This document shows positions 26,898-32,474 of a stretch of DNA of 64,000 nt, in pieces. The notes below the pieces were generated by a model. That model was not told the DNA's origin and did no database searches. It saw only the letters and a program-made list of their open reading frames with translations. Position numbers and translations under genes: made by a program. The stretch spans positions 62,001 to 126,000 of the forward strand of contig NZ_BCZQ01000003.1 of the NCBI RefSeq assembly GCF_001598815.1, given 5' to 3'. This stretch comes from Sphingopyxis terrae subsp. terrae NBRC 15098 (lineage in GTDB: Bacteria > Pseudomonadota > Alphaproteobacteria > Sphingomonadales > Sphingomonadaceae). Position 1 is the first letter of the stretch; every line of letters begins with the position of its first letter.

Positions 26898-27386
26898 CTA
26901 GGCGCGCTCGTGCTCGCTCGACGGTTCTTCCTCGGCCGCCTTGGCCTTTTCCTTCGGCTTTTCCTTTTCGAAGATGGCGAGCAATTCCTTCTTCTTCGCC
27001 TCCGAAAGATCCTTCTCGGCCTCGGGGAACATCTCTTCCTCTTCCTCGTCGATATGATGAAGATAGCGGTCCTTCATCGTGCGAAAGCGGGTGAGCCAGC
27101 CGGTCGAGGCAAAATCCATTTCGTAAAGCTCGGTCAGGAAATCCTCGATCTCCTTATGCTCCGACACGCTGTGCTGTGCATCGTCACGCAGTTCGGGCTT
27201 GGCGAGCATCGTCGCATAGAGCGACATTTCCTCGGACGCGGCGTGCGCGGTCACTTCGACGCGGAACGCCTCGAACAAGGTGCGGCGCTCGTCGCTGTCG
27301 CCGTGGGTCTCGTCGATGCGCGCCAGCAGGTCGCGGTGGCGGTCGTGGTCGGCCTTCAGCCGCGCGAAAATCTTCGTCTCAGCCAT
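26898..27386 (-). CDS. Hemerythrin-like HHE domain protein
   Basis: 162 residues. An HHE-type four-helix protein with putative diiron ligands: His in KADHDRHRD, HAASEE, HKEIEDFL and HHIDEEEEEMFPEAE. The tail (about 125-162) is rich in Lys and Glu. Such proteins bind oxygen or nitric oxide, or act in iron or redox sensing. GGAG precedes the ATG by eight bases. It stands alone between tgt and the GGDEF/EAL gene; the next gene upstream is 64 bp away on the same strand. Confidence 0.9.
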   Translation of the reverse strand: MAETKIFARLKADHDRHRDLLARIDETHGDSDERRTLFEAFRVEVTAHAASEEMSLYATMLAKPELRDDAQHSVSEHKEIEDFLTELYEMDFASTGWLTRFRTMKDRYLHHIDEEEEEMFPEAEKDLSEAKKKELLAIFEKEKPKEKAKAAEEEPSSEHERA

Positions 27387-29634: not shown

Positions 29635-29855
29635 GATTACAACGACACTCGTGCTGGTCCCAACCCGCGGAGATGTTTGGGCCCAATGCCTTGCGATAAT
29701 GTAAATATCCGCGTCCCCGCCGCCGAATATTGTCCCATTCAGGGAAGGGCCGGGTTCGTATCGTCGGCGCCGTAGCCAGGATTGCCGCCGAGAGGCTCCG
29801 GGTTCCATCCCATCGTCGCCCGCATGCTTCAGCTACTCGCTATTCCCCGCGCTCT

Positions 29856-30356
29856 TCAATCGCCGGTGGCCATCGCATCCGCGCCATTCGCCGCAAGCCG
29901 GGTTCGCTTGTCATAATCGCCCAGGATCGCGCTGGTCAGCCCGAAGTCGGTGAGAGCCAGGATCGTCAGATCTTCGGTTTCCGAAACATTCTTCGATTGA
30001 TGAAACACCCAGCGCGGAACGAAAGCCACTTCGCCGGGCTTCAGGCCGATCGTCGCATTGCCGATGCGAACGTCCGCCTCGCCGCGCATCACGATGAAGA
30101 GCGATTCATGCGCATGTTTGTGCAGTTCGTTGTTACACCCAGGCGCAATACGCACCACACGAGCATCGAATGCCTGAACAGCCGGGAAATCGAGCACGTC
30201 GACCGAAAAATCGATGCCCAGTTTTTCGTTGCGGTTTCGGTATATTTCGCGGTGATTATTTAGGATGTCGGCGTGACATTCGCCGACTTGATCGTCGGCA
30301 ATCAGCGGTCGGCGAGAGTCGATAGTCTCGATCAGTTTCGCAAGCTCTGGGGTCAT
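29856..30356 (-). CDS. Cupin-domain protein
   Basis: 166 residues. A single double-stranded beta-helix domain: first metal motif HKHAHE followed by SLFIVMRGEADVRIG, second motif GEVAFVPRWVFHQSKN, so a metal-binding cupin is likely. The ATG at 30356 has GGGA about nine bases upstream; a longer reading would need a TTG. It lies 64 bp downstream of the diiron-oxygenase-like gene on the same strand and probably shares its transcript. Cupins are often dioxygenases, isomerases or binding proteins; no specific activity can be assigned. Confidence 0.85.
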   Translation of the reverse strand: MTPELAKLIETIDSRRPLIADDQVGECHADILNNHREIYRNRNEKLGIDFSVDVLDFPAVQAFDARVVRIAPGCNNELHKHAHESLFIVMRGEADVRIGNATIGLKPGEVAFVPRWVFHQSKNVSETEDLTILALTDFGLTSAILGDYDKRTRLAANGADAMATGD

Positions 30357-30420
30357 ATTATAGTGTCCCGAATTCAATGGTCACATCTTGCCGAGGCGGC
30401 TTCGGCCGCGCGTCTTCACG

Positions 30421-31182
30421 TCAGGAAACCAGTTTCATTCGCGAGGCGCCGGCGCAGGTCAGGGCGCGTTCGTACATCCAGTCCCAGAAGCTCGACCGCA
30501 GCGACAGCGCCTTGATCATTCCACGGCGCAAGTCGCCTTTTCCGGTCGGCGTAGCCGCAAAATGAAGCGAGATTTCTTCGAGCGCTTCTTGATGATGGTC
30601 GTCGACCGCGGTGTGCAAGGGGAAGAATACGGTATCGCGCGGATTGAGATCGGTTCTGGACAGCGCCTTCACGAACGGGACGTAGATCGTGCTGACGATA
30701 TTCTCAGTGCCAAGGCCGAGAGCGCCCAGCGCTTCCGCCGCCGAACCGTAGGTCAACGTACCGAGAAAGGATTCGCGCCAGCAAACCAGTTCGATGGCTT
30801 CATCGTCGGGCGAATAGGGCGAGGTAATGCCGGTTGCCTCACGGAACCGCCGGAACAGCTGCGGATGCGGCACACCTTCGATCCATTCCCTCTCGACGCC
30901 AACGGCGGCGAGTTCGGCATATTCTTCCTCGCCATATACGCCCGATTCCTCGGTCAGATTCTCCAAAAGACTGCCCCGATGCGCCGGGATTTCCAGCTTC
31001 GATATCACGGTGGTCAGGTAGCGGGGAAAATGAAGCGAATAGCCATAATAATGGTCGGCAAAATCCGCCAAGGCCCATTGCGTATCGGGCAAATCCCCAT
31101 CCGACAAAGCGCGGAGATAGGGATGATGGACCGCCCGGTGATTCAGCGACTCTTCGACAAGATCATTAATAAAAACGGACAC
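30421..31182 (-). CDS. Heme-oxygenase-like diiron oxidase/oxygenase (HDO)
   Basis: 253 residues, all-helical. A TenA/PqqC-like fold of the iron-containing redox enzyme type. Candidate diiron ligands follow the SznF/CADD pattern: Glu74 or Glu79 in ENLTEES, His106 in HPQLF, Glu160, and H190-x3-D194-x2-H197 in FFPLHTAVDDHH; the 30-residue distance from Glu160 to His190 equals that reported for SznF. Known members cut or oxidise fatty acids, amino acids and nitrogenous metabolites. The start is a GTG at 31182 with AGGAGG six bases upstream. A cupin gene follows. Confidence 0.85.
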   Translation of the reverse strand: MSVFINDLVEESLNHRAVHHPYLRALSDGDLPDTQWALADFADHYYGYSLHFPRYLTTVISKLEIPAHRGSLLENLTEESGVYGEEEYAELAAVGVEREWIEGVPHPQLFRRFREATGITSPYSPDDEAIELVCWRESFLGTLTYGSAAEALGALGLGTENIVSTIYVPFVKALSRTDLNPRDTVFFPLHTAVDDHHQEALEEISLHFAATPTGKGDLRRGMIKALSLRSSFWDWMYERALTCAGASRMKLVS

Positions 31183-31333
31183 ACATCCTCCTGGCCGATG
31201 ATTTTATTTTATGATGGCTCCGATAACCCCATCCACAACGACGGGTCGGGTGTGTCGCTATAACTATGTCATTGAGTTGATTGTATGAGATCGAGGCACT
31301 GGTGCATTTTCCGGATCGTCCGGGCCACCGCCT

Positions 31334-31357
31334 CTCTCCGTCAGACGTGACGGAGAG
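31334..31357. repeat. Perfect hairpin in the HDO-queA gap
   Basis: Ten-base arms CTCTCCGTCA and TGACGGAGAG around GACG. No T-run follows on either strand. It may be a 5' leader structure of the HDO gene, part of an operator, or a remnant of a mobile repeat. Confidence 0.5.
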
Positions 31358-31402
31358 CATCCGTAGCTGCCCGCCCGCCGATGATCGGCTGCGTTATCGT
31401 GA

Positions 31403-31427
31403 GGGAAAAGCCCGGTGGGAACCGGGG
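31403..31427 (-). terminator. queA terminator
   Basis: On the minus strand CCCGGT pairs with ACCGGG around TCCC and is followed by CTTTTCCC, 17 bp beyond the queA stop. A modest rho-independent terminator that separates queA from the HDO gene. Confidence 0.6.
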
Positions 31428-31442
31428 AAAGAGGCCTTCGCC

Positions 31443-32474
31443 TTATCGTCCGGGCAGCAACAGGCTCGAATCGCCATAGCTGTAGAAACGATATTCCCCG
31501 GCGATCGCATGCGCATAGGCCGCCTGCATCGTCTCCAATCCCATCAGCGCGCTGACCAGCATAAACAAGGTCGATCGCGGCAGGTGGAAGTTGGTCATCA
31601 GCCCGTCGATGGCGCGGAAGCGGTAGCCGGGGGTGATGAAGATCGCCGTATCGCCTTCGAAGGGCCGGATCACGCCGTCCTCGCCCGCCGCGCTTTCGAG
31701 CAGGCGCAGGCTGGTGGTGCCGACCGCTATGACCCGGTTGCCGCGGGCGCGCACCGCGTTGAGCCGGTCGGCAGTCGCGGCATCGATCACGCCCCATTCG
31801 GCGTGCATGACATGATCTTCGGTATCGTCGGCCTTGACCGGCAAAAAGGTGCCCGCGCCGACGTGCAGCGTCAGCGTCTCGCTCTCGATCCCCGCCGCAC
31901 CGAGCGCCGCGAGCAGATCGGGCGTGAAGTGCAAGGCCGCGGTCGGCGCAGCGACGGCGCCGTCCTTTTGCGCGAACATCGTCTGATAATCGCTGCGGTC
32001 GGCATCGTCCGTGGCGCGCTTGCCCGCGATATAGGGCGGCAGCGGCATCGTGCCCGCGCGTTCGAGCAGCAGCTCGACCGGCTCTTCGCCCGGGAAGAAG
32101 AGGATAAAGCTGCCGTCGGCCAGCCGGTCCTCGGCGAGTGCGCTGACGCCTGCGCCGAAATCGACCGTCTCGCCGATGCGCAGCCGCTTGGCGTTGCGCA
32201 CGAACGCCTGCCAGCGGCGCAGGTCGATCCGCTTGTGGAGCGTGGCGCCGATGCGCGCATCGCCCCGTCGCCCTTCGAGCTGGGCGGGGATGACGCGCGT
32301 ATCGTTGAAGACCAGACAGTCGCCCGGCCGCAGCCATTGCGGCAGGTCGCGCACCCCGGCATCGGTCATCGCGCCGCCTGCCACGACAAGCATCCGCGCC
32401 GCATCGCGCGGGCGCGCCGGACGGAGCGCAATGCGCTCGGGCGGCAGATCGAAATCGAAGGCGTCGACGCGCAT
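31443..32474 (-). CDS. queA: S-adenosylmethionine:tRNA ribosyltransferase-isomerase
   Basis: 343 residues. Transfers and isomerises the ribosyl group of SAM onto preQ1 in tRNA to give epoxyqueuosine. Family features include [17 protein letters not shown] at the N-terminus, [16 protein letters not shown], the [11 protein letters not shown] motif near 225-235 and [16 protein letters not shown] near the end. It follows the secreted cyclophilin by 25 bp and is followed by a terminator. tgt, the previous enzyme of the pathway, is downstream beyond a block of other genes. Confidence 0.96.

What the first reader, a model, noticed from the sequence alone, without database searches (positions are those of the whole stretch)
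29856..31182. HDO plus cupin gene pair with lower GC: candidate new pathway
The HDO at 30421-31182 has a full H-x3-D-x2-H motif and a Glu160-His190 spacing equal to that reported in SznF, so a working diiron oxygenase is plausible. A metal-type cupin gene follows 64 bp later. GC in 30961-31080 is 53% by count, against about 70% in a queA line (32041-32100). The pair has no known match by name. It may catalyse an oxygen-dependent step followed by a second metal-dependent conversion.
Basis: partly seen in the sequence, partly recalled or inferred. Interest (0 to 1): 0.7.

Follow-up and report, generated by a model that had tools for sequence, protein, structure and literature searches.

The report
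Mobile diiron-oxygenase plus cupin gene pair
Two neighbouring genes, a diiron oxygenase and a small metal-binding cupin, are found side by side in very different bacteria and are sometimes fused into one protein, so they very probably work together on one molecule, but nobody yet knows which.

Summary
In detail: window 30421-31182 (-) encodes a complete heme-oxygenase-like diiron oxygenase (HDO), followed by a Cupin_2 gene. The predicted HDO fold is confident (pLDDT 94.7) and matches CtCADD, HrmI and BesC; the six expected metal ligands are invariant in 56 of 56 aligned relatives. The low GC is real: a 1,700-bp insert holding only this pair is absent from a relative with 97% identical flanks and from this site in all 20 same-genus genomes read (of 24). 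The pair is linked: 7 of 397 family genomes hold the HDO and the same 7 hold the cupin, always adjacent. Of 80 HDO loci with eight phylum labels, 53 have a cupin within 3 kb, and two cyanobacterial loci encode cupin and HDO as one protein. Elsewhere the HDO sits near a SAM methyltransferase plus an Fe/2-oxoglutarate dioxygenase (22 of 80) or carries a cyclic-nucleotide-binding domain (20 of 80). Against an obligatory pair, 27 of 80 lack a nearby cupin. It is not a pABA synthase and matches no BesC or SznF definition fully. Joint function is well supported; substrate, reaction and order are unknown. I read it as a new, uncharacterised variant of the HDO-cupin theme of SznF, GrbD and HamA/HamB.

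The parts
29749..31448 (.). 1,700-bp insert between queA and the GGDEF-EAL gene, holding only the HDO-cupin pair and short flanks
   Evidence: absent from G013 (L118), whose flanks are 97.1% and 97.4% identical, and from the queA-side site in all 20 same-genus loci read; no terminal repeats or clear target duplication seen
30421..31182 (-). HDO gene (heme-oxygenase-like diiron oxygenase), 253 aa; ligands by alignment E79, H106, E160, H190, D194, H197
29856..30377 (-). Cupin_2 gene (ATG start at 30356 likelier than TTG 30377); 3-His type, H86, H88, H126 in the 173-aa numbering; usual cupin Glu position is Ser92
   Evidence: PF07883 49.2 bits; H86/H88/H126 47 of 47, position 92 S/T in 46 of 47
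31187..31192 (-). ribosome-binding site AGGAGG of the HDO gene
   Evidence: sequence
31411..31426 (-). terminator-like hairpin between queA and the pair, suggesting separate transcription
   Evidence: pattern scan only; 5 such sites found in 29700-31480 against 1.8 expected
31443..32474 (-). queA, flanking host gene upstream of the pair
   Evidence: PF02547 401.5 bits
27451..29808 (-). PAS-GGDEF-EAL gene, flanking host gene downstream of the pair; not found beside the pair in the 11 other sphingomonad loci compared
   Evidence: Pfam; flanks compared

Best explanation
The pair is a compact, horizontally moved two-enzyme oxidative module. The HDO (3 His/3 carboxylate type) most likely binds two irons, activates O2 and oxidises a small, probably amino-acid-like metabolite. 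The 3-His cupin, probably holding one metal ion, acts on the same metabolite line, most likely on the HDO's product, which may be reactive (hence tight adjacency and fusion). In other phyla the same HDO is accompanied by a methyltransferase plus an Fe/2-oxoglutarate dioxygenase, by a PaaE-like reductase, or is fused to a cyclic-nucleotide-binding domain. Shown here: presence, predicted fold, invariant ligand residues, adjacency, co-occurrence, fusion, insertion. Inferred: metal content, O2 chemistry, order of steps, substrate class. Unknown: the reaction.
For: The same 7 of 397 genomes hold HDO and cupin, each time with the cupin just downstream on the same strand. 53 of 80 loci have a cupin within 3 kb, 52 on the same strand. 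Single ORFs with cupin (199.9 and 205.0 bits) and HDO (388.8 and 419.2 bits) in L055 and L040. HDO and cupin distances track each other: r = 0.89 over 47 pairs (46 loci and the window), largest of 1,000 permutations 0.20; r = 0.78 within 10 sphingomonads and 0.76 within 15 loci of the Bacteroidota clade, one of them from Curvibacter. Clean 1,700-bp insert and at least six different sites among 12 sphingomonad loci. Fold and ligands. A FAD/NAD/2Fe-2S reductase gene near the pair in 4 of 80 loci (two annotated), of the kind reported for the HDO partner MboB (passages of PMC13185094).
Against: 27 of 80 HDO loci have no cupin within 3 kb, 23 of them with at least 700 bp on both sides, and 22 of 23 such genomes searched lack a strong match anywhere, so the HDO can occur without it; 10 of the 23 loci have none of the three partners. 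Six of the 53 neighbouring cupins score only 38-42 bits and one 51. Genes moved together also co-occur without sharing a reaction, and a distance correlation is expected for any two genes inherited together. No activity, metal or product is known.
Confidence: 0.66

Rival explanations
1. N-oxygenation followed by cupin rearrangement (SznF/GrbD/HamA-HamB logic): the HDO hydroxylates an amine or guanidine and the cupin rearranges the product, perhaps to an N-N or N-O compound.
For: The published HDO-cupin pairings I met in passages (SznF, GrbD, ChmM fused; HamA/HamB separate) belong to N-N-bonded products (PMC11705231; PMC5878181). SznF needs three cupin His, and this cupin has an invariant H-x-H plus H. 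Nine of 80 loci carry methyltransferase, HDO and cupin together, as streptozocin biosynthesis does. The 3H/3C N-oxygenase HrmI ties for the best structural match.
Against: The sequence profile finds BesC and CADD; SznF is not among the 7 PDB sequences found at E up to 1. No acidic position between the first ligand and H106 is invariant (at most 89%), unlike the 3H/4C SznF type. No close methyltransferase in the window's genome (best 43 bits, against 309-427 for family members in one piece). No NRPS or ligase among the conserved neighbours that I annotated; not all neighbours were annotated.
Confidence: 0.3
2. Carbon oxidation or cleavage: the HDO desaturates, cleaves or hydroxylates a carbon skeleton (BesC/UndA/MboA style) and the 3-His cupin acts as a gentisate-dioxygenase-like or isomerase-type enzyme.
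For: HDO profile hits are BesC first, then CADD. Cupin hits include gentisate 1,2-dioxygenase and 5-nitrosalicylate dioxygenase; the gentisate enzyme 3bu7 also lacks the usual Glu in the aligned motif. A reductase of the MboB kind accompanies the pair in four Bacteroidota loci.
Against: BesC NCBIfam model scores 21.6 against a cut-off of 500. Cupin similarity is low (best PDB E 8e-6) and spread over many functions.
Confidence: 0.36
3. Not a biosynthetic pair but a stress or redox-protection module, as proposed for the HDO DtpC.
For: An HDO (DtpC) is reported to protect against desiccation-induced oxidative stress (PMC13232832, passages). Sporadic occurrence, 7 of 397 genomes, fits a niche trait.
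Against: Companions in other phyla are metabolic enzymes (SAM methyltransferase with Fe/2OG dioxygenase) in 22 of 80 loci.
Confidence: 0.1
4. The cupin is a regulator, metal sensor or binding protein for the HDO, not an enzyme.
For: Many small cupins are non-catalytic (recalled); the usual metal Glu position is Ser/Thr.
Against: H86, H88, H126, P121, R122, W123 and N130 are invariant and Q127 46 of 47 in 47 cupins, as expected for a metal site.
Confidence: 0.12

Closest known systems
SznF/StzF, GrbD, ChmM (HDO with C-terminal cupin)
   Same: HDO plus a cupin with three essential His (SznF); in nine loci here a methyltransferase too
   Different: here separate genes, or cupin N-terminal in the two fusions; 3H/3C rather than 3H/4C as far as sequence shows; SznF not found by the family profile
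HamA/HamB of fragin biosynthesis (separate HDO and cupin genes)
   Different: ham has an AurF-like N-oxygenase, an NRPS-like protein and a cyclase; none lies in the insert or among the conserved neighbours I annotated
CtCADD / NePabS (self-sacrificing pABA synthases)
   Same: among the best fold and sequence matches; same 3H/3C ligand set
   Different: Tyr27 and Lys152 positions are Leu (56 of 56) and Phe/Ile/Leu (56 of 56)
BesC (4-chloro-allylglycine synthase)
   Same: best PDB sequence hit of the profile, E 5.7e-10
   Different: far below the BesC model cut-off (21.6 against 500)
MboA/MboB (HDO with dedicated NAD(P)H/flavin/2Fe-2S reductase)
   Same: four Bacteroidota loci put a FAD/NAD/2Fe-2S reductase gene near the HDO-cupin pair
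   Different: the reductase is absent from the window's insert; no peptide ligase among the conserved neighbours annotated

Membership tests
HDO superfamily (PF14518) | curated profile match | tested here: met
   64.3 bits against 28.9
HDO superfamily (PF14518) | 3 His/3 carboxylate ligand set in order E, H, E, H-x3-D-x2-H | tested here: met
   E79, H106, E160, H190, D194, H197 all 56 of 56; E79, H106 and E160 placed by alignment to CADD, whose own ligand numbers are recalled
HDO superfamily (PF14518) | seven-helix heme-oxygenase fold | tested here: met
HDO superfamily (PF14518) | dimetal cofactor and O2 activation | not testable with these tools
   needs protein
CADD/PabS pABA synthase | sacrificed Tyr27 and Lys152 | tested here: not met
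   aligned residues L23 and F/I/L170 in 56 of 56 (alignment); TIGR04305 44.4 bits against cut-off 200
BesC | NCBIfam equivalog NF042919 | tested here: not met
   21.6 bits against 500
SznF type | fourth carboxylate from an auxiliary helix (3H/4C) | tested here: inconclusive
   no invariant acid between 79 and 106; best D/E share 0.88-0.89 at 86 and 87; a short helix 85-93 exists in the model
SznF type | cupin fused C-terminal to the HDO | tested here: not met
   separate gene in the window; in L055 and L040 the cupin is N-terminal
SznF type | three-His cupin iron site | tested here: met
   residues only: H86, H88, H126 47 of 47; Glu position S 28, T 18, A 1; metal not tested, and invariant E91 could also bind
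Ham/Pvf type | NRPS-like and AurF-like partners in the cluster | tested here: inconclusive
   none in the 1,700-bp insert or among the conserved neighbours annotated; the rest of the genome and the other neighbours were not searched for them
Cupin_2 (PF07883) | curated profile match | tested here: met
   49.2 bits against 27.2

The most novel reading that the evidence does not exclude
A short, previously undescribed pathway spread across eight phylum labels: an HDO core does O2 chemistry and hands a reactive intermediate to a 3-His cupin (directly when fused) or to a methyltransferase and Fe/2OG dioxygenase; in Planctomycetes, some Myxococcota and some cyanobacteria the O2-activating enzyme carries an intact-looking cyclic-nucleotide pocket, which would make it a second-messenger-gated HDO, a kind I have not seen described. 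The sphingomonad version is a stripped two-gene form.
Probability: 0.3. Interest if true: 0.76.

Novelty: new variant of a known kind. Interest (0 to 1): 0.52.

Why it matters

Tried and rejected
pABA synthase: rejected on the two sacrificed residues. Phage or plasmid carriage: no pattern match in viral contigs and one 34%-identical plasmid hit at E up to 1e-10, so the vector is unknown; no terminal inverted repeats or target duplication seen at the insert. Anti-phage defence: HDO, cupin and dioxygenase have no PADLOC match; the methyltransferase matches mad2 only over residues 12-151. Link to the neighbouring GGDEF-EAL gene: not seen at the other 11 sphingomonad loci compared. MT and 2OG partners in the window's genome: no dioxygenase match, no close methyltransferase. 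Guanitoxin-like dioxygenase: GntD model 19.4 bits against 345. SznF does not appear in the structural listings shown, which says nothing either way. Foldseek rows for the cupin part were general cupins. A looser cupin search (E up to 0.001) hits 13 of 41 relatives, but all except G000 and G021 at about 30 bits or less; the same kind of HDO search hits 3 of 41, one of them (G027) at 22.9 bits. Paper searches for this kind of locus listed no paper whose title, abstract start or passages that I saw describe it; listings were capped, the library is open-access only and supplements were not readable.

Full report
Observation. The HDO is 30421-31182 (-), 253 aa, with a GTG start behind AGGAGG. The cupin ends at 29856; ATG 30356 (166 aa, 64 bp from the HDO) agrees with most aligned relatives better than TTG 30377. 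Pfam: PF14518 64.3 bits and PF07883 49.2 bits, both over cut-off. No NCBIfam model reaches its cut-off for either.

A recent insert. The window's genus relatives allow a clean test. In G013 the two flanks are 97.1% identical over 5,749 bp and 97.4% over 2,783 bp, and meet where the window has 1,700 extra bases, 29749-31448. Twenty of the 24 same-genus relatives listed were read next to queA; none has any match to the insert there. In several of them only the queA side aligns, so the other flank differs. G021 has the pair on another contig. No inverted repeats or clear target duplication mark the ends. Insert GC is 57.6% against 65.5% for the window, and third-position GC of the two genes is 64-67% against 81-85% in five neighbours. 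Among 12 sphingomonad loci the pair lies at six or more sites with unrelated neighbours (some neighbours annotated). The genus is Sphingopyxis by inference: G108, 'same genus', has a contig as long as the S. microcysteis record.

Linkage. In 397 genomes drawn from the family, 7 hold the HDO and exactly the same 7 hold the cupin, each time with the cupin directly downstream. The chance of two independent sets of 7 coinciding is 3e-15, overstated because genomes are related. In the scan of one genome per species, 84 relatives were found and the best 80 kept. Of these 80, 53 have a cupin within 3 kb, 52 on the same strand, 43 downstream and 10 upstream or N-terminal. Of the 53, 46 score 100 bits or more, six proteobacterial ones score only 38-42 bits and L054 scores 51. 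L055 (Microcystis elabens FACHB-917) and L040 encode cupin and HDO in one ORF. Pairwise distances of HDO and cupin correlate at r = 0.89 over 47 pairs.

Results against an obligatory pair. Of the 80 loci, 27 have no cupin within 3 kb; 4 of these (L018, L060, L075, L077) have under 700 bp on one side. Of the other 23, 13 carry the methyltransferase and/or the Fe/2OG dioxygenase and 10 have none of the three partners. I searched 23 of the 27 genomes (not those of L049, L060, L075, L077) and three controls: one of the 23 (L053's) has a strong cupin elsewhere (182.9 bits), 22 have none above 34 bits. Most records are metagenome bins and may be incomplete.

Other partners. A class-I SAM methyltransferase and a TauD-family dioxygenase (H-x-D and H invariant in 13 aligned) lie together near the HDO in 22 of 80 loci, nine of them with the cupin too. 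By sequence the dioxygenase is nearest in the PDB to FrbJ, followed by others that include gamma-butyrobetaine dioxygenase and TmpA, the methyltransferase to phosphoethanolamine N-methyltransferases among others; no NCBIfam cut-off is reached. This hints at an amine-containing substrate, no more. Four loci (L062, L063, L067, L070) add a FAD/NAD/2Fe-2S reductase, two of them annotated. In 20 of 80 loci the HDO carries an N-terminal cyclic-nucleotide-binding domain, and 18 of the 20 show a G-E...R-x-x-T/S motif of the phosphate-binding cassette type (that this motif binds the nucleotide is recalled). The window's HDO lacks this domain, and its genome has no such dioxygenase and no close methyltransferase.

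Tree. A quick tree of 81 HDO domains puts the window in a 10-row sphingomonad group with 100% SH-aLRT; the five larger phylum labels need 2 to 5 changes each, and the tool left three small labels unlisted. Several end branches are long. This is compatible with transfer between phyla but no proof, since bins can hold stray contigs.

Comparison with what is known. The review PMC13108848 states that SznF, unlike other characterised HDOs, has a C-terminal cupin. PMC11705231 (passages) adds GrbD, ChmM and HamA/HamB. PMC11177257 (passages) surveyed 426 SznF homologues. PMC13185094 (passages) examined HDOs beside ATP-grasp ligases and reports MboA/MboB as perhaps the first dedicated HDO-reductase pair. 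PMC11363339 (passages) analysed the 150 largest HDO groups for ligands; whether the present group is among them I could not see. I found no paper on the present group, but listings were capped, and supplements and subscription journals were not searchable.

Verdict. The pair is real, intact by conservation, recently gained at this site and very probably functionally linked. It works like a split HDO-cupin system; it fails defining features of the CADD and BesC families and one of SznF (C-terminal fusion), with another (3H/4C) inconclusive. The chemistry is open; I lean slightly to carbon oxidation (0.36) over N-oxygenation (0.30).

Noticed in passing
L087:10670-12721 (-), contig C42 of the window's genome: A second PF14518 protein in the same genome: a 684-aa AMP-binding enzyme fused to an HDO domain, with a short-chain dehydrogenase gene and a PF12261 (thermostable hemolysin family) gene beside it.
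   Followed up: partly
L019, L023, L024, L027, L029, L030, L031, L035, L037, L038, L043: Planctomycete-type cNMP-HDO genes lie near a family of clustered genes (27 proteins in 11 loci); the one annotated is AIM24. Link to the HDO unknown.
   Followed up: no
L072 and L079 (same contig JAHJNJ010000009.1): One gammaproteobacterial contig carries two copies of a more distant HDO with a weakly matching cupin next to it.
   Followed up: no
L146:6535-7215: An NnrU gene lies next to the pair; relatives of it also flank the pair in L011 and L013.
   Followed up: no
window 26898-27386 (-): A hemerythrin-domain gene (PF01814, 57.7 bits) lies between tgt and the GGDEF-EAL gene; together with that gene and the pair it separates queA from tgt.
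   Followed up: no
L025, L042, L050, L054, L056 (cyanobacteria): The HDO genes lie downstream of one conserved gene (cluster C22; it looks like FtsH by eye, not annotated by a call); in L025, L054 and L056 a carbamoyltransferase-type gene (annotated in L056 only) lies downstream.
   Followed up: no
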